From: a virus
Length of the DNA: 25,212 nt
Virus record (IMG/VR): IMGVR_UViG_3300042882_000098
Location: 1-25,212 of that record
Reading direction: 5' to 3' (one strand)
The notes under the pieces were generated by a model that saw only the letters and a list, made by a program, of their open reading frames with translations, did no database searches and was not told the origin of the DNA. Below are positions 8,385 to 25,145 of this stretch, piece after piece. The position numbers and the translations under genes are program-made. Every line of letters begins with the position of its first letter. Within the stretch, counting starts at the first letter, position 1.

Positions 8385-11213
8385 TTGTCAAATATTCAAA
8401 TCCCGAACTTGCCTGCGGCTATTGCCTTAAATGGCAACGAGCAACTTGAAGCCGTGCAGGCGGGGGTGTCGGTAAAAACCACAGTTGCGCAATTGGGCGC
8501 GTATGCCGTCGCGTCGTTCACCGCCACTTCACCCCTCGTGTTCGTCGGCAGCGACATACAGCTCACCACGGTCCCTGTAGTGCTCGGGGGTACGGGAGGG
8601 ACGACGCAGCAGGCCGCCGCCGAGGGCCTCGGCGCGGCCTTCCCCGTCTTGAACCTGACCGCCTTGAAGGCTCTCACGTCACGCCCTCCCGTGGTCCGCA
8701 TGAGCGGGTACGCGACCCTGAACGACGGCGGCGGGGGCGACTGGTACTGGGTAGCCGGCGACACGACCACGCCCGACGACATACTCGTCGCGCAGCCGGC
8801 GTCAGGCACGGCCGGGCGCTATTTTCGCGTCTACACAGATTTCGTGAACGTCATGTGGGCCGGCGCAGTGCCCGACGCCGTTTTTGACACCGCTACGGGT
8901 GCGTGGACGGGGACGGACAACACGGCGATGTTTCGTAATGCGTTCGTGGCTGCGGCAGCGAGCCTTTTGGATTGGTACTGCCCGGCGGGCAGCTACATCA
9001 TCACAGGCACCGTGGTGCTCGGCAACGAGACGCCAAGCAACATGGAGTTCTACGGCGACGGCGACAAGAGCGTCATCATCCCCAAGATCAGCGGTCAGGC
9101 TGGTACTTTCAGCCCGTTCGTCATTGGCCAGTCGCAGATCAACGCGAACGGCGTCACGACGGGCAGCCCGACCTACTACCTGCCGTCGTTCGTCCCCTCG
9201 GGCAGCAACCTCCTGCCGATCAGCACGACGGCGGGGCTGACGGTGGGCGTCTGGGCCCAAATGATGGACCTGACGCAGCCGATTTTGAATTTTTCCGACG
9301 GCGGCCTCGACGGCATCGGCACGGCCAAAGTATTCCTCGGTCAGGCCGTCAAGATCATCGGGCTCGACGACGGTACGGGCGACACTTTCGACATCGTCTA
9401 CGGCACGTATGACTCGGCCACGGGTGAGACGTTCATCCGCGTCACGGCGCCGACGACATTCGCCAACGGGTCCACCATCACGCTGTCGGGCCTCACAGGC
9501 ACGGGCGCGTTCGCCTCTCTCAACGGTTCGTGGACGACGTTCGCCTCAACTTTGAGCGGCCCCGGCACGACCGACTTCTACTTCACCGGAACGTCGGGCC
9601 TCGGAGCCACCACCATCACAGGCGGCACCGTAACGTGGGCGGGCGATCTCACCCCGCGCATCGTCATCAGCCCCGCCGCCGAATTCAACTACGCGGGCAC
9701 CACGACCAGCCCCGGCACCAATGCGACGTGTTTCCGCACCTACCGACCGGAAGTGGGCAACATCGTCTTCCGCGACATGCGGTTTTCCTACGACCGCACG
9801 GAGCCTCCGTTCAACGCGCAGACGGTAGTGAACGCAGCGCGGCTCAACAACACGCTGTTCACTGGGCTGTCGTTTGAGTGGCCCGCGAGGTCCATCTCTG
9901 CCAATGGCGCAATCAACGGCAGCATCTCCCAGTGCAACTTCACGAACGGCGGCGCGTTTACCTACTGCGTCGTGTTTGACGACGGCGCGAGCGGGTGGCG
10001 CATCTCCGACTGTCACGCGCAAGGGGGGCGTCACTTTATTCAAGGGGGCCTGACCGCGCAGTACTTCATGGCGTCGTGCCATGTGCGGATTGAGAACAGT
10101 CAGTTCTCGAATTTCTATCTGGCGCCCCTGACGGCGCATGGCTACGCCCGCGACTGGATTTTTGAGGGGAACGAGGTCTGGGGCGGCACGACGGACACCG
10201 GAAGCGCCGGGCTGATCCTTCGCGGCCTGCGGCTCACGTCGCGCAACAACCGCATCACGGGCTGCAACACAGGCGTGGTTTTCTCGCCCAATCAAGGCTG
10301 CATCCTCGACGGCGGCGAGATCATCAACTGCAACACGGGCGTGGCTATCGCCCGCACGTTGGAGGCGCAGATACGCAACTACCCCTTCATTCAGGGGTCG
10401 AGGGACGCACACATCTACGTGTACCCTTACGAGTACCTTCGCCCCACGTCTCCGTTCCCCGGCATCAACATCACGGCGAAGGTGGCCCCGACGCGCTACG
10501 TGTACTTCATCGATAGCGGCACCTATGACAACGCGACGGGAGCCGTCTCGATCACGCTCACGCAGCCGTTCATCTTCAACACCGGTGCCACACTGCTGCT
10601 CGACCAGTTGACGGGCACGGGCGCCGCCAGTTCGCTCAACGGCACCTACACGTCGACCTCCGGTTCTGCCGGGACCTTCATCTTCACCTTCACAGCAGCA
10701 TCCGGCCTCGGCGCAATCACGATTGACACGGGCACCGTGACGTTCCTGCAGAGGCCGACCAACGGCGACGTCATGTGGCTGACGAACAGTCCCGGCGTCG
10801 CGCCGCTCATGGCGGACACCACGCGCATCGACATCAAGTCCGACGCGCTCGCGCCGATCTTCACAACGTGGGAAGAGGATGGCACCACTCCTTTGGGAGT
10901 GCCCTTCCCGGGGGAGTTCTCCGTTGGCGTAACGACCAAGACGGCCAACTTCTCGTTCGTGCCGTATCTCTACGCCACGTACATGTTCGACACGACGTCG
11001 GGGAATGTCACCGGCACGTTGCCCAACGCCACGACGTTGATCGGTATGCGCGTGCAGGCCAAGAAGACGAACACGGGCGGAAGCACGGCCACCATAGCGA
11101 CCACCAGCTCTCAAACTATCGACGGGAGCGCCACCAAGGTTCTGACCGACAACGAGTTCGTCACATTGATCGCCGAGGGTACGAGTGTAACGGCCAACTG
11201 GTATATCGTGTAG
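8385..11213 (+). CDS. Tailspike with pectate-lyase-like beta-helix (942 aa)
   Basis: A 942-residue tailspike or receptor-binding protein. The N-terminal part (IPNLPAAIALNGNEQLEAVQ, VLGGTGGT) is a virion-attachment region of a common phage type. Around residues 145-235 comes the entry to a pectate-lyase-3-like beta-helix (MWAGAVPDAVFD, DNTAMFRNAF, CPAGSYII, NMEFYGDG). Helix rungs continue to about residue 680 (RLNNTLFTGLSF, SQCNFTN, IENSQFSNF, SRNNRITGCNTG). Two related beta modules of about 80 residues interrupt or follow the helix (339-420 and 710-789). The C-terminal domain (867-942) ends in WYIV and recurs in the 129-aa protein at 15390-15779. It probably binds and perhaps cleaves host surface polysaccharide; catalytic residues cannot be assigned by eye. 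The start is TTG. Confidence 0.85.
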   Translation: MSNIQIPNLPAAIALNGNEQLEAVQAGVSVKTTVAQLGAYAVASFTATSPLVFVGSDIQLTTVPVVLGGTGGTTQQAAAEGLGAAFPVLNLTALKALTSRPPVVRMSGYATLNDGGGGDWYWVAGDTTTPDDILVAQPASGTAGRYFRVYTDFVNVMWAGAVPDAVFDTATGAWTGTDNTAMFRNAFVAAAASLLDWYCPAGSYIITGTVVLGNETPSNMEFYGDGDKSVIIPKISGQAGTFSPFVIGQSQINANGVTTGSPTYYLPSFVPSGSNLLPISTTAGLTVGVWAQMMDLTQPILNFSDGGLDGIGTAKVFLGQAVKIIGLDDGTGDTFDIVYGTYDSATGETFIRVTAPTTFANGSTITLSGLTGTGAFASLNGSWTTFASTLSGPGTTDFYFTGTSGLGATTITGGTVTWAGDLTPRIVISPAAEFNYAGTTTSPGTNATCFRTYRPEVGNIVFRDMRFSYDRTEPPFNAQTVVNAARLNNTLFTGLSFEWPARSISANGAINGSISQCNFTNGGAFTYCVVFDDGASGWRISDCHAQGGRHFIQGGLTAQYFMASCHVRIENSQFSNFYLAPLTAHGYARDWIFEGNEVWGGTTDTGSAGLILRGLRLTSRNNRITGCNTGVVFSPNQGCILDGGEIINCNTGVAIARTLEAQIRNYPFIQGSRDAHIYVYPYEYLRPTSPFPGINITAKVAPTRYVYFIDSGTYDNATGAVSITLTQPFIFNTGATLLLDQLTGTGAASSLNGTYTSTSGSAGTFIFTFTAASGLGAITIDTGTVTFLQRPTNGDVMWLTNSPGVAPLMADTTRIDIKSDALAPIFTTWEEDGTTPLGVPFPGEFSVGVTTKTANFSFVPYLYATYMFDTTSGNVTGTLPNATTLIGMRVQAKKTNTGGSTATIATTSSQTIDGSATKVLTDNEFVTLIAEGTSVTANWYIV

Positions 11214-16313: not shown

Positions 16314-16934
16314 GTGCCATTGAAGCGCGGTTCCTCGCAGGCCACGATCAGCGCGAACATCCGCGAGATGCTCTCGTCAGGGCGTCCGCGCGAACAGGCC
16401 ATCGCTGCCGCCTTGAACACCGCGCGCAAGCCGCGCGCCACCGGCGGCAAGGTCCATACCGGCGCGATCCACAGCGCCGTCGCCGGGCGCACCGACCACC
16501 TGCCGATGCACGTTCCCTCCGGGGCCTACGTCATTCCGGCCGACATCATCTCGGCCATGGGCGAGGGCAACACGACCGCGGGCTTCAAGGTCGCCAAGTC
16601 GATCTTCAGCTCACCCTTCTACAGCGCCTCGAAGGCGGGTGCGGGGGCGCCCTACGGCCAGTCTGGCGAGCCTTACGACGCCCAAGGCGACCAACCCTAC
16701 GTCGAGGACGTGCTGCCCTACAACGCGCCGATGCCGGGCAAGGCGGAGGGCGGCAGCGCGACGGTCCCCATCGTCGCCGCCGGCGGCGAGTACGTGATTC
16801 ACCCCGAGGACGTCGTGCGGCTCGGCAAGGGCTCGCTCGATGACGGGCACAAGATCCTCGATGAATTCGTGAAGAAGTTCCGCGCGAAGACCATCAAGAC
16901 ACTCGAAAGCCTCCCCGGGCCGAAGAAAGACTAA
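16314..16934 (+). CDS. Phage virion-region protein with a duplicated YVI module (206 aa)
   Basis: A 206-aa protein starting at GTG. Residues 1-38 (LKRGSSQATISANIREML, REQAIAAALNTARK) form a short basic helical motif that I recall from many environmental phage proteins. Two similar modules follow. The first (about 63-98) contains LPMHVPSGAYVIPADIISAM then GEGNTTAGFKV. The second (about 151-187) contains VPIVAAGGEYVIHPEDVVRL then GKGSLDDGHKIL. A Pro/Tyr/Gly-rich linker lies between them. The G-x-YVI-x-P-x-D core also recalls GEYV motifs at the ends of phage tape-measure proteins. It is the first gene of the block leading to the giant ejection proteins and overlaps the acetyltransferase gene (TAATG). 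The function is unknown; an internal virion or ejection-related role is inferred from context. Confidence 0.75.
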   Translation: MPLKRGSSQATISANIREMLSSGRPREQAIAAALNTARKPRATGGKVHTGAIHSAVAGRTDHLPMHVPSGAYVIPADIISAMGEGNTTAGFKVAKSIFSSPFYSASKAGAGAPYGQSGEPYDAQGDQPYVEDVLPYNAPMPGKAEGGSATVPIVAAGGEYVIHPEDVVRLGKGSLDDGHKILDEFVKKFRAKTIKTLESLPGPKKD

Positions 16935-17491
16935 TGAGCACGTCCGCAACCCCGTCAATGCTTGAGGCGAAGCAGATGACTGACATCCGAGTACGCGTCG
17001 GCACACCCGAAGACGTTCATCAATTTATGGATCTCTGCCTGCAAGGCAGCGAGGAGAACGGCTTCGTGCAGCCCGACGCGCAGAAGCTCCTCGCCGAGGT
17101 GTGGCCCGCGCTCAATCGCGACGGCGGCATCTGCGGCGTGATCGGCGCACCCGGCGCGGACCACTTCGAGGGCGGCATCCTGCTCCGCACCTGCAAGCTC
17201 TGGTACAGCGACCAGATCGTGCTGGAGGAGCGCGGCGTGTTCGTCCACCCGGAGTACCGCAGCGCCAAGGGCGGCCGCGCGCGCAAGCTGTGCGAGTTCG
17301 CCAAGGCGGCCGCAGCGAAACTTGAGATGCCCCTGATGATCGGCATCCTGTCGAACAGCCGGACGGAAGGGAAGGTGCGGCTCTACGAGCGCATCTTCGG
17401 GAAGCCCTCCGGTGCCTATTGGTTGTGCGGGGCCGAGACCGGGGTGACCAACAAACTGCCGCCGGGCGGCACCAACAAGGCTGAACACTGA
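16934..17491 (+). CDS. GNAT-family N-acetyltransferase (185 aa)
   Basis: A 185-aa protein of the GNAT fold, which transfers acetyl groups from acetyl-CoA to amines. Visible elements are the N-terminal strand/helix IRVRVGTPEDVHQFMDLCLQ (about 18-37), the central strand IVLEERGVFVHPEYRSAKGG (96-115), whose VHPEYRS-x-GG-x-A region corresponds to the acetyl-CoA pyrophosphate-binding motif A, the following helix ARKLCEFAKAAAAKL, and the strand MPLMIGIL, then RLYERIFGK. The motif loop deviates from the usual Q/R-x-x-G-x-G/A pattern. An in-frame ATG at 16979 (MTDIRVRVG) is a possible alternative start and gives a more typical GNAT N-terminus. It is packed between virion genes with overlapping stops and starts on both sides. 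The substrate is unknown. Confidence 0.8.
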   Translation: MSTSATPSMLEAKQMTDIRVRVGTPEDVHQFMDLCLQGSEENGFVQPDAQKLLAEVWPALNRDGGICGVIGAPGADHFEGGILLRTCKLWYSDQIVLEERGVFVHPEYRSAKGGRARKLCEFAKAAAAKLEMPLMIGILSNSRTEGKVRLYERIFGKPSGAYWLCGAETGVTNKLPPGGTNKAEH

Positions 17492-20400
17492 TGTTCTCTG
17501 AACGCAAGATATGGAACGACGGGGCCCCCTTCGAGGACTTCATGGGCCGCGACGGAGCCCCGCCGGTTGCGCGGCGGCATCTTGCGTTCGGTGGCGGCAA
17601 GGGCGGCTCGGGCGGCACGACGTACCAGACCCAGCAGACCACGATCCCGCCGGAAGTTCAGGCGCGCTACAACGCGGTCAACCAGCGTGCCGAGCAGGTC
17701 GCGCAGCAGCCGTTCAAGCCCTACGAGGGCCAGTTCGTCGCGCCGATAACGGGCACCCAGCAGGCCGGCATCAACCAGATCGCCGCGGCGGGGCAGGGCT
17801 ACCAGCCCTACCAGCAGGCGGCGACGACGGCCCTGACAGGATCCGCCGAGGCGGCCCTCCCCTACTACGGGCAGGCGGGGCAGAACATCGGCGCGGCGCA
17901 GGCGGCGGGGGCCCCCTACACGGGCGCGGCCACGATGGCGGGGCTGGCCGGCGCGCAGTCGGTTAACCCGGGGCAGCTCGACATCGGGCGGTACATGGAC
18001 CCCTACCTGCAGTCGGTAGTTGCACCGACGATGCAGGGTCTGTACCAGCAGCAGCAGCAGCAGCAGAGCCAGCTCATGGGCTCGCAGGCCATGCGCGGCG
18101 CCTTCGGCGGCGACAGAGGCTCGATTGCGGCCGCAAATCTGGCCCGCCAGCAGGGTCTGGCCGCGCAGCAGGCTCAGGGGGGCCTCCTGTCGCAAGGCTA
18201 CGGGCAGGCCCTGCAGGCGGCCCAGCAGCAGCAGGGCGTGGGCCTCGGGGCCGAGCAGGCCAACCGGGCCGCGATGCAGCAGCTCTCGCCCCAGCTCCTC
18301 CAGATCGGGCAGCAGGCCTTCCAGCAGCCCATGGCGGCTGCGCAGGCTCAGCAAGGCCTCGGGCAGGGCCTCCTCGGCTACGGGCAGAACCTGTCGCAGG
18401 GGCTGGCCGGGCTGGGTCAGCAGGGCACGCAGACGGGGCTGGCGAGCGGTCAGGCGCTGCTTGGCGCCGGCACGCTGGAGCAGCAGACCCAGCAGCAGCT
18501 CAACGCGGCCCTCTACAACCAGTACCAGCAGCAGCAGGGGTACCCGTTTCAGGTCGCGCAGTTCCTCGCGAACATCGCGATGGGCACCGGCCCGCTCTAC
18601 GGCAGCACGACATCCGGCGTCACCGGGCAGCCGACGCCGTTCTTCTCGGACGAGCGCGTCAAGGAAGACATCACCGAGATCGGCCGCACTCACGACGGCC
18701 AGAAGATCATCAAGTTCAAGTACAAGGGCTCGAACCAGCCGCAGATCGGCCTCTCGGCGCAGGACGTCGAAAAGCACCACCCGGAGGCTGTCAGCGAGAC
18801 GCCCGAGGGCATCAAGGCCGTCGACTACGACATGGCGACCGAGCATGCCGAGCGCGCCTACGGCGGCGGCGGCCTGATGCCGTCGTCGGAGGGCGGCGCC
18901 GTGCATCCCAGCATGGCGGGCCTCGGCTTTGCGAGCGGAGGCACCCCGGTGCCGGGCGCGAACCCGGAGGTGGACGAGATGCTGCGCGGGCTCGCGCCCC
19001 GTCGCGCGTTTGCCACGGCGGGGGCAGTGACGCCGGGCGTCGACGCCTACACGCAACAGCTCTTGCAGTCGTTGGTCAACCCCATGGGCGGGACGACGCC
19101 GCATGGCGCGAACGGCAAACTGCCCCACAAGCCGGGAGCGTGGTCGCCGGGTGTCGCCAAAGCGTCGCCCCTCCTCAAGGGTTCGCTTCCGTCCTTGCCG
19201 CAGCAACAGCCTACAGGGTTGTCGCAGACCATAGGCGGCGTCAAGGACGCCGTCGGGGCCTACGAAACAGGCGAAAAACTTTATAAGGGCGGCGAAAAAG
19301 CCTACAACTGGGCCAAGAAGGAACTCGACCGCCAGCCCAGCGGCGTGTCGCCTGACGGCGCTACGACTGGCGGCAACAAGATCACGCGCACCGACCTGCC
19401 TGCGCCGGCGCAGCCGGCAAGCGCCGCTCCGACGCAAACGAGCGGGCTCGGTGCCGCCACCCCGACGCGGGTTGCTGACGCAGGATCCGGGCTTGCGCCC
19501 GAAACCGCGGTAGCGTCGCTTGATGCGTTGCCGACGGAAGACATCGCGGGCCTCGGTGAGGGTCTGACAATGTTTGCCGCGCGCGGCGGCCGCATTGGCT
19601 ACGAAGGCGGCGGTCTGACGGGCAGCAACCCGGCGCTTCCGTATTCCGGTGGTGACGACAAGTCGATAATTGAAGATATCGCCGATGACCCGGTGAAGGC
19701 GCAAGAACAGAAGATCGGGCACAAGCTCGACATGAGCGATAAGGGCGGCGGAGGCCAAAAGAAGGACGGAACTGGGAAGGCCATCGGCTCGCTGGCTGGC
19801 GCAGGCATCGGCGCGATGTTTGGGCCCATGGGCATGGGCGTCGGGAGCAGCCTCGGCGGCCTGCTGGGCGGCATGTTCGCGCGCGGCGGCGCGACCGACA
19901 TCGAGCACGCCAAGGGTTTGATCTCGCGCGTCGAGAGCGGCGGCAACTACAACGCTATGGGCCCGCTGGTTCGCGGCGACCGTGCGCACGGCAAGTATCA
20001 GGTCATGGGCGCAAACATCCCGAGCTGGACCGAAGAAGCCCTCGGGCGGCGCATGACGCCCGCCGAATTCCTGAAGAGCCCGGAGGCGCAGGAGCGCGTC
20101 TTCGAGCATCACTTTGGCAAGTACCTCAACCAGCACGGCAACCTCGCCGACGCCGCCTCAATGTGGCACAGCGGGCGTCCGCTGGCGAAGGCGCGCGCCG
20201 ACGGCGCGCGCGACGTCAACATGTCGACCGAGGACTACGTCGCCAAGATCCTCGGCGGTGCGCCGCCGGCCGAGGCGCACATGCGCGCCGAGACGCCGCC
20301 GCAGCGCAGCGCGGGCCTTGCGCCGCCGCTTCATGAAGACGAAGCGCCACCGCCGCGGCCTTTCGTCGATACGAACGACGACTTCGAGATGTTCAACGAC

Positions 20401-22380
20401 TTTGAGTTACCTGTCCGCTTTGCAGCGGGCGGCCTCGTGCCTCGCCGCGGATATGAAGATGGCGGCGTGCCCGGCGCGGCACCGCCATCTGAGGAGACAC
20501 CTGAGACCATCTGGGACCGACTGAACAGGACAGTGCCGGTAAACCTCGCGACAGCGCCGAGGTCTGTGTCGTCGACCCCCGCACCGCCTGCAGCCGCTGG
20601 CGACCCCCTCGACGAACTGGCGACCGATGCCCTCCGCCGCGAGCGGCAGGAGGCGAGTGCGCCTCCCCCGTCCACTACGCCGGCCGCGCCGCCGCAGCGC
20701 CCCCCGGCAGTAGCGCCGCAGGTGGCAAGTGCAACAACCCCCGCCGCCACCACCCCCGGCGTTGCGCCGCCGCTGAAGTCGGTGGAGGTGACCCCGTCGA
20801 AGCAGGAAGATGCGCCGAAGCCGGGGGATCGCGATTTCTTCGACCGTGCGGGTGACTGGGCGGGTCGCAACCAGAACTGGCTGCTCCCGGCTGTCAGCGG
20901 CATCGGCAAGATGCTCGCGTCGCCGTCGCCGTACCTCGGCGTCGCCATCGGTCAGGGTCTCGCCGAAGGCGCGCAAACGGGCTTGGGTGCCAGTTTCAAG
21001 CAGCAGGGCCTTGATATTCAAGGAGCGCAAGCCGCGGCGGAGGTTTCTCGATACTTCACGCAAAACGTACAGGAGTATCAGGATCCGACGCGCGGCCGCA
21101 TGTACTGGGACAAACTCTCTGGCGACCGCTTGACCCCTGAAGAGTACAACCGACGCCGCCTTGACTTCATCAAACAGTTTCTGCCGCGCTTTCAAGTCCC
21201 CGGGGCCACCGGCACGTCCCCCGCAGGCGGCGGGGCCGCCGCAGGCGCAGGCGCGCCCCCCGCAAGTGGTGAAGGGCCCGTGAGGAATACAGGCGCGCCC
21301 CCCGCAAGTGGTGAAGGGCCCGTGAGGAATACAGGCGCGCCCCCCGCGGGGGTTCCCTCAGCGGCCCCGAGCGGGACGCCCGTCGGGGTGCCTCCGGGCG
21401 CCCCTTCGCCCGCGGGCGACGAACGCGCGGCCGATGCCGCCGTCGCACGCGATATCGAGCGGCCGTCGTACTTGCGCGCACAGATCGCCGACCTCGAACG
21501 GCGGCGTCTTGCGGCGCAATCAAGCGGTAACTCCGGCGAGGCGCAGCAGCTTCAACAGCAGCTCAACGACTACACCGGGAAACTTGGGCTCATCACCAGT
21601 GGCACCACTCAACCGTCGGATGCTCAAGGCAACCCGGTCACGTACTGGGCCGCCAACGAACGTCGCCGCGTCGGCGCCGAAGCGAAGTTCAAGGAAGCGG
21701 AGACGCGCGCTCAAGACGCGCGTAAGGACGCGAAGCTGGCCGCCGACACTAGCCTGCAGCTGGGACAGTTGTCGGCCAACTATAACTCGGTGCCCCAGAC
21801 GGGCTGGGGCTCACCGGGCCCCGCGGCGGATGCGCGTATCGGCCTTGTCCGCTACCTGAATACCGGCCTTCAGGTGCTGGGCGTACCGCAATCGGAGTTG
21901 GGCGCTACGTCGGCAGGAGCCGAAGCTCTGGCAAAGGATACGACAAGGCTCGCGTCCGAGATGACGAGGCTCATGGGTTCTCACGAGGCAGCGTCGGTAT
22001 TCAACAGCATCGCCGCCGCGACGCCGCGTCTCGAAAACACCCCGCAAGGGTTCAACCGGATTGTGGCCGGTATGAAGGCCGCGCTCGACTACAAGAAGGA
22101 AAAGGCGGCCTTTACAACCGCATACGTCAACAAAAACCAGACTATCGACGGGCTCGACGCTGCCTTCCAGCAGGCCCTGCCGACCGAACGGTTTATCGCG
22201 CAGGGGCTTGTTGAGGCTATCCCTGCGCAGAACCGAGAAGGGCTCACCAGACAGGCGGCGGTTGACTTCATGAAACAGAACATCGACAGCGCGGGGGCCG
22301 CAGCGCAAGTGGACCGTGAGTTCGGGCAGGGCACGGCGGCGGCCATCCGGTACATGCTGAAGAACGGGATGCTTCAATGA
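17491..22380 (+). CDS. Giant ejection-type virion protein with S74-like motif and transglycosylase domain (1629 aa)
   Basis: A multi-part 1629-aa virion protein. Residues 1-380 are Gln/Gly/Ala-rich and helical, with seven consecutive Gln. Residues 384-460 match the short Peptidase_S74/intramolecular chaperone type: S386 and K391 in FFSDERVKEDI, then IGLSAQDVEKHHPEAV and VDYDMA. Residues about 799-930 form a lysozyme-like transglycosylase domain with probable catalytic E815 in SRVESGGNYNAMG, followed by HGKYQVMGANIPSW. Pro/Ala-rich linkers, a 42-base tandem repeat (residues 1254-1281) and coiled-coil-like helices follow (DLERRRLAAQ, QQLQQQLNDY, AKFKEAETRAQDARKDAK). It probably enters the periplasm with the DNA and opens the murein, like the large internal proteins of T7-type phages. 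Overlaps at both ends couple it to the GNAT gene and the next ejection gene. Confidence 0.8.
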   Translation: MFSERKIWNDGAPFEDFMGRDGAPPVARRHLAFGGGKGGSGGTTYQTQQTTIPPEVQARYNAVNQRAEQVAQQPFKPYEGQFVAPITGTQQAGINQIAAAGQGYQPYQQAATTALTGSAEAALPYYGQAGQNIGAAQAAGAPYTGAATMAGLAGAQSVNPGQLDIGRYMDPYLQSVVAPTMQGLYQQQQQQQSQLMGSQAMRGAFGGDRGSIAAANLARQQGLAAQQAQGGLLSQGYGQALQAAQQQQGVGLGAEQANRAAMQQLSPQLLQIGQQAFQQPMAAAQAQQGLGQGLLGYGQNLSQGLAGLGQQGTQTGLASGQALLGAGTLEQQTQQQLNAALYNQYQQQQGYPFQVAQFLANIAMGTGPLYGSTTSGVTGQPTPFFSDERVKEDITEIGRTHDGQKIIKFKYKGSNQPQIGLSAQDVEKHHPEAVSETPEGIKAVDYDMATEHAERAYGGGGLMPSSEGGAVHPSMAGLGFASGGTPVPGANPEVDEMLRGLAPRRAFATAGAVTPGVDAYTQQLLQSLVNPMGGTTPHGANGKLPHKPGAWSPGVAKASPLLKGSLPSLPQQQPTGLSQTIGGVKDAVGAYETGEKLYKGGEKAYNWAKKELDRQPSGVSPDGATTGGNKITRTDLPAPAQPASAAPTQTSGLGAATPTRVADAGSGLAPETAVASLDALPTEDIAGLGEGLTMFAARGGRIGYEGGGLTGSNPALPYSGGDDKSIIEDIADDPVKAQEQKIGHKLDMSDKGGGGQKKDGTGKAIGSLAGAGIGAMFGPMGMGVGSSLGGLLGGMFARGGATDIEHAKGLISRVESGGNYNAMGPLVRGDRAHGKYQVMGANIPSWTEEALGRRMTPAEFLKSPEAQERVFEHHFGKYLNQHGNLADAASMWHSGRPLAKARADGARDVNMSTEDYVAKILGGAPPAEAHMRAETPPQRSAGLAPPLHEDEAPPPRPFVDTNDDFEMFNDFELPVRFAAGGLVPRRGYEDGGVPGAAPPSEETPETIWDRLNRTVPVNLATAPRSVSSTPAPPAAAGDPLDELATDALRRERQEASAPPPSTTPAAPPQRPPAVAPQVASATTPAATTPGVAPPLKSVEVTPSKQEDAPKPGDRDFFDRAGDWAGRNQNWLLPAVSGIGKMLASPSPYLGVAIGQGLAEGAQTGLGASFKQQGLDIQGAQAAAEVSRYFTQNVQEYQDPTRGRMYWDKLSGDRLTPEEYNRRRLDFIKQFLPRFQVPGATGTSPAGGGAAAGAGAPPASGEGPVRNTGAPPASGEGPVRNTGAPPAGVPSAAPSGTPVGVPPGAPSPAGDERAADAAVARDIERPSYLRAQIADLERRRLAAQSSGNSGEAQQLQQQLNDYTGKLGLITSGTTQPSDAQGNPVTYWAANERRRVGAEAKFKEAETRAQDARKDAKLAADTSLQLGQLSANYNSVPQTGWGSPGPAADARIGLVRYLNTGLQVLGVPQSELGATSAGAEALAKDTTRLASEMTRLMGSHEAASVFNSIAAATPRLENTPQGFNRIVAGMKAALDYKKEKAAFTTAYVNKNQTIDGLDAAFQQALPTERFIAQGLVEAIPAQNREGLTRQAAVDFMKQNIDSAGAAAQVDREFGQGTAAAIRYMLKNGMLQ
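18046..18066 (+). repeat. (CAG)7 simple sequence repeat encoding a Gln run
   Basis: Seven perfect CAG codons encode a Gln run in the N-terminal Gln-rich part of the 1629-aa protein. Uninterrupted trinucleotide runs can change length by slippage without breaking the frame. Confidence 0.8.
21250..21347 (+). repeat. Perfect 42-bp in-frame tandem repeat with a partial third copy
   Basis: Two identical 42-base units (21250-21291 and 21292-21333) are followed by the first 14 bases of a third (21334-21347). Each unit encodes GAPPASGEGPVRNT within a Pro/Gly-rich linker of the 1629-aa protein. Perfect identity, including silent positions, implies a recent duplication. Confidence 0.9.
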
Positions 22381-25145
22381 GCGACAACGATCCGGCTGAT
22401 TTTCGCTCCTTCGCGCGGCAGTACGCAACTGCCGAAGCAGAACCGCCGGCGCAATCGTTCAGGGCCTTTGTCGGCGCGCCCCCGCCCGCGCCTGATCAGT
22501 TCTCCGCTGAAGGCGCGGCAGATGTTGGAAAGGCGCTGGCCTCGGGTGTCGGTCGCGGTGTGGTCAGCACCCCCGGCATCGTAGGCGACGTCGCCTCTCT
22601 CGCGCCATATGCGGGCCCCGCGCTACGGTACGGCGTCGGCAAGGTGCGCGAATTTCTGGATAGCGGCACCGCCCGACAGGCAGACGAGGGATGGGAGGCC
22701 GACACGAAGCGCATCGAGGCCGCGAAGACGCCCGAGGAGCGTCGGGGTACTCATGCGAGAGTTCTGGGGCTTGATCTGCCGACCAGTTCAGGCATGACTA
22801 AATTCGCTACCAAGCTCGGCGTGCCGGGGCTGGAGTACAAGGCGACGACGCCAGTGGGGCGGGGCGCCGCAACGGTCGGCGAGTTCGCGGGGGGTGCCTT
22901 CGGATTTGGTCTTCCCGGCGCCGCCATGAAGGGATCGCTGAAGGGGGCGCTGCGAGAGGCCGTGTCTCCTGTCACTCTCGGGGCGGGTGTAGCCGCGGGC
23001 GCAGCGCATGAGGCGCTCCCTGATAGCTCGGTCGCGCCTATCGCTGCGGCTCTTGCGGGGGGCCTCGGTGCCGGGGCCGCGCGCCAGCGTCTGATGCCCG
23101 GCAGACAACGCGACATGGCGGAGCGGTTGGCTGCCGACGTAGCCCGCAAACACTTACCGGACGTTGGTGACGCACAACAGCGGCTTGCAAGTGCGTTGCC
23201 ACCGGCGGCCGCACCCCGAGGGCGCGTCGAACCTTCGATGACGGGGGCGCCCCCGAGTGCCGTCGGCGCGCAAGGTCGCTTCGCTCCGGGCGCAACGCCG
23301 ACCACAGCGCAGTTAGTTCCCGAACTGTCCGGGCTTACTCCGCCTGAGTTACGCCGCCCCGGCCTTGGCGAGCAAAACTTCGCCGATCAGGTTGCGGCGC
23401 TGCAGGCGCGCATCCAGCCGCCCGCGCCTTCAATGGCTGACGCCCTTGGTATACCTCTGGTCGACAACCCGATGGGCGTCTCAGCGCAACAGGCACGTCA
23501 GGTGTTCGACACTGTCCACGACGCCTACAAGGGTGCCGCCGATGCCGCGTGGGCCCACCCGGCAATTGCACAGGCGCGTTATAAGACACGCGAAGTGGGC
23601 GCGGCCGTCGATGAGGCCATAAAGAAGATGGGCCCCGCGACGTTTGAGAACATGCCTGTCGAATTGCGACGTTACGTCGAACAGCTCAAGACCTACGGTG
23701 GTGAGGGCATCCCCCTCACCGAGTTGCAGAAGGTGAAGACGTTTGCGAACAGCATGGTTCGCAATCCGATGGTCATGGACAAGTCAGGGGCCGTTGCGCT
23801 GACGACGCTGCTCGACGATGTGATGACCGACACAGCGAACGTGCTGCCTCGCTATATGTCCGGTACGGTATACCCGGAGGCTGCGGGCGCGTGGGACGCG
23901 GCGCGCAAGGCTACTTACGACTACAAGAAGTTGTTCGCCGTCGATGCCCGGACCAAGGCCAACGTGGATCTTGAGAGACTGACCGGGGTGTACCCTAAGG
24001 GCACCACGCAGGCCGGAATGCCTATCATTCCGGGCGAGGAAACGCTGAAGTTCCTCGACAGCCCCCGCGCTCTGCAGACGTATCGCGAGATGACGGCCCT
24101 CCCCGGCATGGATGTCAACGCGCTCAATCGCTCTGTAGGTGATTGGATCGTCGGCAAACTTACCAAGAACGGCGAAACGCCGATGATTGGTCAGAAAGAG
24201 ATCGCGAACTATCTAAAGAACCCCCGCAACGCTGAAATCGTCAACAGCGTACCCGGGCTGCGCGACCGGCTTGACTTGATCGCCGGGCAGAGCCGCGCAG
24301 AGAAGCTGCAGGCAGCCCTCGGCAACGTGTTGGAAGACGGCTCGCCGAAGAAGTTTCGCGCGCTGATGGAGAAGCACGGCGACGATCTTCGCGAGGTGTT
24401 CTCTGGCCCTGAACAGCGGGCGTTCCTCGACCAGATGGATCAATCGTCGCGCGTCCTGAGCCGGCTGCCGTCGGGGCCGATTTCGGAAGAGCGCCTCTAC
24501 CGGCTGCTGCAGGATGGCAACCTGTTCACGATCCTGCACGGCCACGCCTCTGGAGCCCTCGCCGCCGCTGTAGCGGGGCTTATCGCGGGCAAGGCCGTCG
24601 GCGTAGCCGCCCCGGCGCTCGCGGGATACGAGATGCTAGGAGCCGGCGCGGGCACGCTGGGTTTCTTCAAGAAGCCGACCGAGCTGTTGGCGCGGGCGTC
24701 GTATGGCCCCGTCAAAGAAGCTTCTATCGAGGCCCTCCACCGCGCGATGGCTGATCCCGAGTACATGCGGATTTTGCTGCAGAAACCTTCCATCGAGAAC
24801 ATCCTGAACCCCGCGTCAATTCCGGGGTTGAAGCAGATCCTCGGCAAGGGCGCACCGGAGGCGGCCGAACTGGGGTATCTGGCCGGGCGTCAGACGCAGC
24901 CGCAAGAGCAGCCGCAGGGCGGCCTCACAATCCCGATGCACAACACGCCGACGGGCGCCCCACGGCCGCAGCGCAAGGCCGGCGGCCGGATTGGCGGGGT
25001 CAACCACGGTGCCATCGCGATGTCGCTGATCCGCGCCGCAGAGAAGGCCAAGAAGGGCCACAACACGACGACAGAACCCCTCCTTGAGCAGCCTGATGAA
25101 GCCATCACCAAGGCGCTCGCCATTGCCGACGAGGCCCTTTCATGA
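22377..25145 (+). CDS. Large internal virion/DNA-ejection protein (922 aa)
   Basis: A 922-aa mostly helical protein. The N-terminus (DFRSFARQYATAEA) is disordered. Several Gly/Ala-rich weakly hydrophobic segments follow (about 47-85, 163-240), with a stronger one near 720-765 (GALAAAVAGLIAGKAVGVAA), suited to membrane insertion during genome delivery. The middle (about 380-700) is helical and charged (QQARQVFDTVHDAYKGAADA, FANSMVRNPMVMDKSG, ANYLKNPRNAEIVNSVPGLR). The last 60 residues carry a C-terminal pattern that I recall from large ejection proteins of environmental phages: RKAGGRIGG, AIAMSLIRAAEKAKKGHN, TEPLLEQPDEAITKALAIA. No catalytic motif is evident. It begins in an ATGA overlap with the 1629-aa gene, and the two are probably ejected together. 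Confidence 0.75.
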   Translation: MSDNDPADFRSFARQYATAEAEPPAQSFRAFVGAPPPAPDQFSAEGAADVGKALASGVGRGVVSTPGIVGDVASLAPYAGPALRYGVGKVREFLDSGTARQADEGWEADTKRIEAAKTPEERRGTHARVLGLDLPTSSGMTKFATKLGVPGLEYKATTPVGRGAATVGEFAGGAFGFGLPGAAMKGSLKGALREAVSPVTLGAGVAAGAAHEALPDSSVAPIAAALAGGLGAGAARQRLMPGRQRDMAERLAADVARKHLPDVGDAQQRLASALPPAAAPRGRVEPSMTGAPPSAVGAQGRFAPGATPTTAQLVPELSGLTPPELRRPGLGEQNFADQVAALQARIQPPAPSMADALGIPLVDNPMGVSAQQARQVFDTVHDAYKGAADAAWAHPAIAQARYKTREVGAAVDEAIKKMGPATFENMPVELRRYVEQLKTYGGEGIPLTELQKVKTFANSMVRNPMVMDKSGAVALTTLLDDVMTDTANVLPRYMSGTVYPEAAGAWDAARKATYDYKKLFAVDARTKANVDLERLTGVYPKGTTQAGMPIIPGEETLKFLDSPRALQTYREMTALPGMDVNALNRSVGDWIVGKLTKNGETPMIGQKEIANYLKNPRNAEIVNSVPGLRDRLDLIAGQSRAEKLQAALGNVLEDGSPKKFRALMEKHGDDLREVFSGPEQRAFLDQMDQSSRVLSRLPSGPISEERLYRLLQDGNLFTILHGHASGALAAAVAGLIAGKAVGVAAPALAGYEMLGAGAGTLGFFKKPTELLARASYGPVKEASIEALHRAMADPEYMRILLQKPSIENILNPASIPGLKQILGKGAPEAAELGYLAGRQTQPQEQPQGGLTIPMHNTPTGAPRPQRKAGGRIGGVNHGAIAMSLIRAAEKAKKGHNTTTEPLLEQPDEAITKALAIADEALS

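What the first reader, a model, noticed from the sequence alone, without database searches (positions are those of the whole stretch)
18625..18870. S74-like Ser-Lys motif in the middle, not at the end, of a 1629-aa protein
The segment from S386 (FFSDERVKEDI, K391 five residues later) to VDYDMA looks like the short Peptidase_S74/intramolecular chaperone family. In classical members (endosialidases, tailspikes) this domain is C-terminal and cuts itself off at the Ser. Here about 1170 residues follow, including a transglycosylase. If cleavage occurs at S386, the gene is a polyprotein yielding a Gln-rich N-terminal virion protein of about 385 aa and a separate enzyme-bearing ejection protein. If it does not, the motif has been repurposed as a fixed internal domain.
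Basis: partly seen in the sequence, partly recalled or inferred. Interest (0 to 1): 0.65.

Follow-up and report, generated by a model that had tools for sequence, protein, structure and literature searches.

The report
Mini self-cleaving domain inside phage ejection protein
A virus of bacteria carries a shrunken copy of a known self-cutting domain in the middle of a protein probably injected into the host: it keeps every catalytic residue but has lost the helix that normally triggers the cut, so it may be a cutting point between two fused proteins or a retired one, and a simple expression test would decide.

Summary
Residues 386-434 of the 1629-aa ORF (17491-22380) match Pfam Peptidase_S74 above its cut-off, with Ser386/Lys391 in the catalytic SDxxxK register. 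It is not a lone oddity. In podoviruses of the phiGT1/pCB2047 type the Gln-rich part plus S74 is a separate ~330-360 aa virion protein ending 1-13 residues after S74, followed by a peptidoglycan-hydrolase gene. The window belongs to a second lineage (~80 loci) in which the two are one ORF, so S74 is internal by gene fusion (or its twin lineage split). S, D and K are invariant in 129 distinct S74 segments, the only polar invariants. Yet the C-terminal coiled-coil helix needed for trimerisation and cleavage in MYRF is missing in all of them, while tail-fibre S74s of the same genomes keep it. S74 is a detachable module: lost at least six times on the tree (two further cases outside it), often ending the protein within a few residues of Ser, and present twice in 12 ORFs. 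Best reading: a compact S74 derivative that still self-cleaves and separates ejection protein 1 from the hydrolase (45%); main rival: an uncleaved folding module (35%). Cleavage is untested.

The parts
17491..22380 (+). 1629-aa ORF: Gln-rich N-part + mini-S74 + Gly-rich linkers + lysozyme-like domain + C-terminal part
17611..18588 (+). N-part, residues 41-366: Gln-rich, predicted mostly helical; matches PHROG 6121 (virion structural protein) and 4287 (DNA ejection protein)
18589..18645 (+). Thr/Gly/Pro linker, residues 367-385, predicted disordered, just before Ser386
18646..18837 (+). mini Peptidase_S74 domain, residues 386-449
   Evidence: Pfam PF13884; AlphaFold2 pLDDT about 90-94
18646..18648 (+). 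Ser386 codon TCG, predicted nucleophile and cleavage site (Phe385/Ser386)
18661..18663 (+). Lys391 codon AAG, predicted general base
18826..18855 (+). 10-residue C-terminal helix (446-455), in place of the long coiled-coil helix of classical S74
19777..19890 (+). hydrophobic Gly-rich segment followed by a GG motif (res 763-800); 12 relatives carry a second S74 after such a helix in this linker region
19903..20205 (+). lysozyme/transglycosylase-like domain (res 805-905)
16934..17491 (+). GNAT-like gene, the conserved upstream neighbour of the S74 protein
22377..25145 (+). 922-aa ORF in the place of the third internal virion protein

Best explanation
The 1629-aa protein is two podovirus internal (ejection) proteins in one chain: a Gln-rich protein whose natural C-terminus is a reduced S74 domain, and a peptidoglycan-hydrolase ejection protein. 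The reduced S74 keeps the catalytic centre. It most likely still cuts itself at Phe385/Ser386 during assembly, giving a ~385-aa virion protein and a ~1244-aa hydrolase that begins with the S74 remnant. SHOWN (by sequence): S74 homology, invariant SDxxxK, the two architectures, missing coiled-coil helix, repeated module loss and duplication. INFERRED: virion/ejection role, that cleavage occurs, and that oligomerisation comes from the N-part or is not needed.
For: S, D, K = 129/129 distinct segments (about 80 independent at 80% identity, pairwise identity down to 25%); the other invariants are G, A, P and (bar one sequence) Y; SDxxxK is named the catalytic motif in PMC10769870. Other MYRF cleavage-site residues have counterparts: R590=R389, Y615=F409, Y617=Y411, Q639=Q424 (with PMC8326128). 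Full-length second copies keep the motif, and so do the truncated ones. In stand-alone relatives the N-part and the hydrolase are separate proteins, so a cut restores the usual state. S74-less sisters end where a cut would leave the protein...GASFI* in L178/L180 against ...NLIKF|SDRR in L163, a few residues before Ser. Ser386 follows a predicted disordered linker.
Against: In MYRF, trimerisation through the C-terminal coiled coil is a precondition for cleavage, and a zipper mutant (L683A) is not processed (PMC8326128, PMC3742443). Here that helix is 5-10 residues while tail-fibre S74s of the same genomes have it. No upstream triple beta-helix is predicted. Fused proteins without S74 exist (L113, L239, L240), so the cut is not essential. 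The S-D could also be kept for structure. No protein-level data were available.
Confidence: 0.45

Rival explanations
1. The mini-S74 no longer cuts. It is a small autonomous beta domain kept as a cap or folding/assembly module next to hydrophobic or Gln-rich helices, and the fused protein stays in one piece in the virion.
For: Coiled-coil helix absent throughout. The domain folds confidently as a monomer. Copies sit after short hydrophobic helices. The module is lost repeatedly and replaced by GG motifs in fused proteins. Copy 2 is truncated in L109/L110.
Against: Does not explain why the only invariant polar residues are the catalytic SDxxxK.
Confidence: 0.35
2. S74 cuts only conditionally (in the assembled virion core or during ejection), with neighbouring subunits supplying the trimer contacts the domain has lost.
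For: Ejection proteins are multimeric and refold during ejection (PMC8954989); S74 acts as a folding sensor in tailspikes (PMC3742443).
Against: No direct evidence; core symmetry in this group is unknown.
Confidence: 0.15
3. A chance similarity or an assembly artefact (misjoined contig) placed S74 mid-protein.
For: None found.
Against: Pfam match above cut-off; the same architecture in about 80 loci from many independent metagenomes and in MW202675.
Confidence: 0.01

Closest known systems
Stand-alone S74 structural proteins of phiGT1, Sulfitobacter pCB2047-A/C, EBPR podovirus 2 and Rhizobium phages (PHROG 6121)
   Same: same SDxxxK mini-S74 without coiled coil, alike in length and sequence; same gene order: GNAT, S74 protein, hydrolase, third internal protein
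   Different: separate gene with S74 at the C-terminus; the window's lineage is fused to the hydrolase
Classical phage S74 / intramolecular chaperone domains (endosialidase NF 3GW6, T5 L-shaped tail fibre 4UW8, Bdellovibrio MAT fibres)
   Same: Pfam family, SDxxxK, beta core
   Different: those follow a triple beta-helix, carry a C-terminal coiled-coil helix and sit at the end of receptor-binding proteins
MYRF / MrfA ICA domain (7DC3)
   Same: internal S74 that separates an N-terminal protein from a long C-terminal part by Ser-Lys autoproteolysis; profile match E = 1.5e-4 from the stand-alone relatives
   Different: MYRF has the long coiled-coil helix (670-705), a longer alpha-1 region and a beta-helical stalk
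T7 internal virion proteins gp14/gp16
   Same: early ejection protein and transglycosylase-bearing ejection protein encoded close together; the hydrolase half of L026 matches PHROG 342, internal virion protein with endolysin domain
   Different: separate proteins, no S74

Membership tests
Peptidase_S74 (PF13884) | profile match above the gathering score | tested here: met
   25.4 bits against 22; 53 of 53 stand-alone relatives match
Peptidase_S74 (PF13884) | SDxxxK catalytic motif | tested here: met
   129/129 distinct segments
Classical intramolecular chaperone/ICA domain | C-terminal coiled-coil helix for trimerisation | tested here: not met
   5-10-residue helix, then Gly linker or stop; tail-fibre S74s of the same genomes have the helix
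Classical intramolecular chaperone/ICA domain | upstream triple beta-helix to fold | tested here: not met
   helices plus disordered linker predicted upstream, at low confidence
Classical intramolecular chaperone/ICA domain | located at the protein's C-terminus | tested here: not met
   internal in the window lineage; C-terminal in the sister lineage
Self-cleaving S74 peptidase | autoproteolysis N-terminal to Ser | not testable with these tools
   needs expression or virion mass spectrometry
Podovirus internal (ejection) protein | homology and gene context | tested here: met
   PHROG 6121 and 4287 matched by 60/60 relatives; gene order
Podovirus internal (ejection) protein | present in the virion and ejected | not testable with these tools

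The most novel reading that the evidence does not exclude
A trimerisation-free (or core-assembled) S74 autoprotease that matures a phage ejection polyprotein, cutting once or, in relatives with two S74 copies, twice, to release a pore-type protein and a peptidoglycan hydrolase from one chain.
Probability: 0.38. Interest if true: 0.75.

Novelty: new variant of a known kind. Interest (0 to 1): 0.5.

Why it matters
S74 domains are known as trimerisation-coupled scissors at the end of tailspikes, and in MYRF. A widespread form in injected proteins that keeps the catalytic residues but lacks the trimerisation helix would either break the rule that cleavage needs the coiled coil or show a catalytic motif kept for a non-catalytic role. 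Either result is informative and cheap to test. It would also bear on how podoviruses mature their internal proteins, about which little is known.

Tried and rejected
Plain sequence search of the segment against PDB gave only a spurious ThreeFoil hit; family profiles reach S74 structures. Foldseek on both models gave no match at E <= 0.001, because the low-confidence helical part dominates; MyRF 7DC3 appears only weakly, E about 0.8-1.4. RecA and OmpA hits were judged compositional or chance. NCBIfam gave nothing for this protein. The Ser codon test was uninformative: all TCN, no switch between codon families. The phiGT1 virion paper (PMC10386132) does not discuss the S74 protein in its text and its mass-spectrometry supplement could not be read. 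L188 looked like an S74 loss but is an in-frame stop with S74 continuing downstream. Chance match and misassembly were rejected.

Full report
OBSERVATION. The 1629-aa ORF (17491-22380, +) exists as described. Pfam Peptidase_S74 matches residues 386-434 with E = 1.8e-5, above its curated cut-off. Ser386 (TCG, 18646-18648) and Lys391 (AAG, 18661-18663) are five residues apart, the spacing of the S74 catalytic dyad (S587/K592 in mouse MyRF and S911/K916 in endoNF, PMC8326128). The domain is about 64 residues (386-449, 18646-18837).

WHERE THE INTERNAL POSITION COMES FROM. Two PHROG profiles of 392 positions (6121 virion structural protein; 4287 DNA ejection protein) match residues 174-452 and 40-451 and end with the S74, so in other phages the N-part plus S74 is a whole protein. 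Annotated podoviruses confirm it. In Sulfitobacter phages pCB2047-C and phiGT1, EBPR podovirus 2 and Rhizobium phages I3_18 and N2 the order is GNAT gene, S74 protein, hydrolase or second internal protein, third internal protein. The window has GNAT (16934-17491), the 1629-aa ORF, then a 922-aa ORF: the first two internal proteins are one chain. MW202675 has the same fused form, 1185 aa, annotated internal virion protein D. The lysozyme-like domains of the two lineages look related but weakly (33% over 76 aa, E = 0.004 in a tiny search).

FAMILY SURVEY. Two scans of viral contigs gave, with the earlier loci, 191 related ORFs, 173 with S74 in the same ORF. All N-part relatives of the window type are fused (S74 followed by a Gly-rich linker and 700-1600 aa where the contig is long enough); all of the phiGT1 type are stand-alone, with S74 ending 1-13 residues before the stop. 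On a tree of the N-part the two types are separated by a long, fully supported branch; the only exceptions are two very long-branched, unsurely placed stand-alone rows, L029 and L024. One fusion, or one split, explains the pattern; the direction is not determined. Seven further loci in MAG contigs, mostly of proteobacteria, repeat the fused pattern.

CATALYTIC CENTRE KEPT. Among 129 distinct segments (about 80 effective at 80% identity, mean pairwise identity 50%, minimum 25%) S, D and K of SDxxxK never vary; the other invariant columns are G, A and P, with Y broken in one sequence. PMC10769870 calls SDxxxK the catalytic motif. From the profile alignment to MyRF and the residues listed around the MyRF cleavage site (PMC8326128), R590, Y615, Y617 and Q639 correspond to R389, F409, Y411 and Q424 here (my mapping).

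TRIMERISATION HELIX LOST. AlphaFold2 (59 sequences) gives the S74 segment pLDDT of about 90-94 as a small beta fold with one internal helix and a 10-residue C-terminal helix, followed by disorder; the linker before Ser386 is below 50. The stand-alone relative ends in a 5-residue helix. In MyRF the C-terminal helix (670-705) forms the trimeric coiled coil, cleavage needs the trimer (PMC8326128), and a zipper mutant is not processed (PMC3742443). Tail-fibre S74s in the same genomes have such helices, e.g. NIAPLVAVLTKAIQELSAEVSALSKELDAVKSKLP (L226) and KLAPLALQGVKELKALILKQAKRIDDLEQQLASKST (L231). The spacing from Lys to the first Tyr/Phe is also five residues shorter than in MyRF, and no helix is predicted there. 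This reduced S74 is therefore a distinct sub-type.

A DETACHABLE MODULE. Nine complete ORFs of the first survey have no S74; on the tree this needs at least six changes. L178/L180 sit inside a clade of S74-bearing relatives and end ...GASFI* where L163 reads ...NLIKF|SDRR: the natural end is within a few residues of the predicted cut. In the fused lineage L113, L239 and L240 lack S74 and continue from the Thr-rich linker into a GG motif, e.g. L239 TTTTTQPMSIFGNARGGSVRSKYASGGLIPSSMGGAV. Conversely 12 fused ORFs carry two S74 copies, the second in the linker after a short hydrophobic helix; full-length copies keep SDxxxK, and copy 2 of L109/L110 is truncated after 31 residues but also keeps it.

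MECHANISM. Shown by sequence: S74 homology, invariant catalytic motif, fused and stand-alone architectures, missing coiled coil, repeated loss and duplication. Inferred: virion location and ejection (from PHROG annotation, gene order, and homology of the hydrolase half of L026 to T7-type internal proteins); cleavage. I weigh cleavage at 0.45 for constitutive and 0.15 for conditional cutting, because catalytic residues are the first thing a retired enzyme loses and here they never are. Against it stand the missing trimerisation helix and the apparently intact fused relatives without S74. An uncleaved folding module is put at 0.35.

NOVELTY. S74 proteins in this genome position are already annotated in phage records, and internal self-cleaving S74 is known from MYRF. 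In the held literature I found no description of the coiled-coil-less form, the fusion to the hydrolase, the double copies or the replacement by GG motifs; subscription papers were not searchable. I file it as a new variant of a known kind.

Noticed in passing
L035, L036, L067, L070, L086, L090, L099, L106, L108, L109, L110, L237: Two S74 copies in one internal protein; copy 2 follows a short hydrophobic helix in the linker. In L109/L110 copy 2 is truncated after 31 residues.
   Followed up: partly
window 19777-19890; also residues 457-485, 694-720, 977-990 of the ORF; L026, L113, L239, L240: Recurrent Gly-Gly motifs (FAxGGxV, GGRxGYxxGG) stand where relatives carry S74, after hydrophobic or Thr-rich segments, as if S74 and the GG motif were interchangeable. 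Function unknown.
   Followed up: partly
L239, L237, L238, L240: Long near-identical internal repeats expand the Gln-rich N-part (in L239 units of roughly 55 aa).
   Followed up: no
L188 4682-4684: In-frame stop inside the N-part with the rest of the protein, including S74, continuing downstream in the same frame: sequencing error, pseudogene or readthrough.
   Followed up: no
window 8385-11213: 942-aa ORF between structural genes with no PHROG or NCBIfam match.
   Followed up: no
window 16934-17491: A GNAT-like gene directly precedes the S74 protein in both lineages; its stop overlaps the start of the 1629-aa ORF (TGATG).
   Followed up: no
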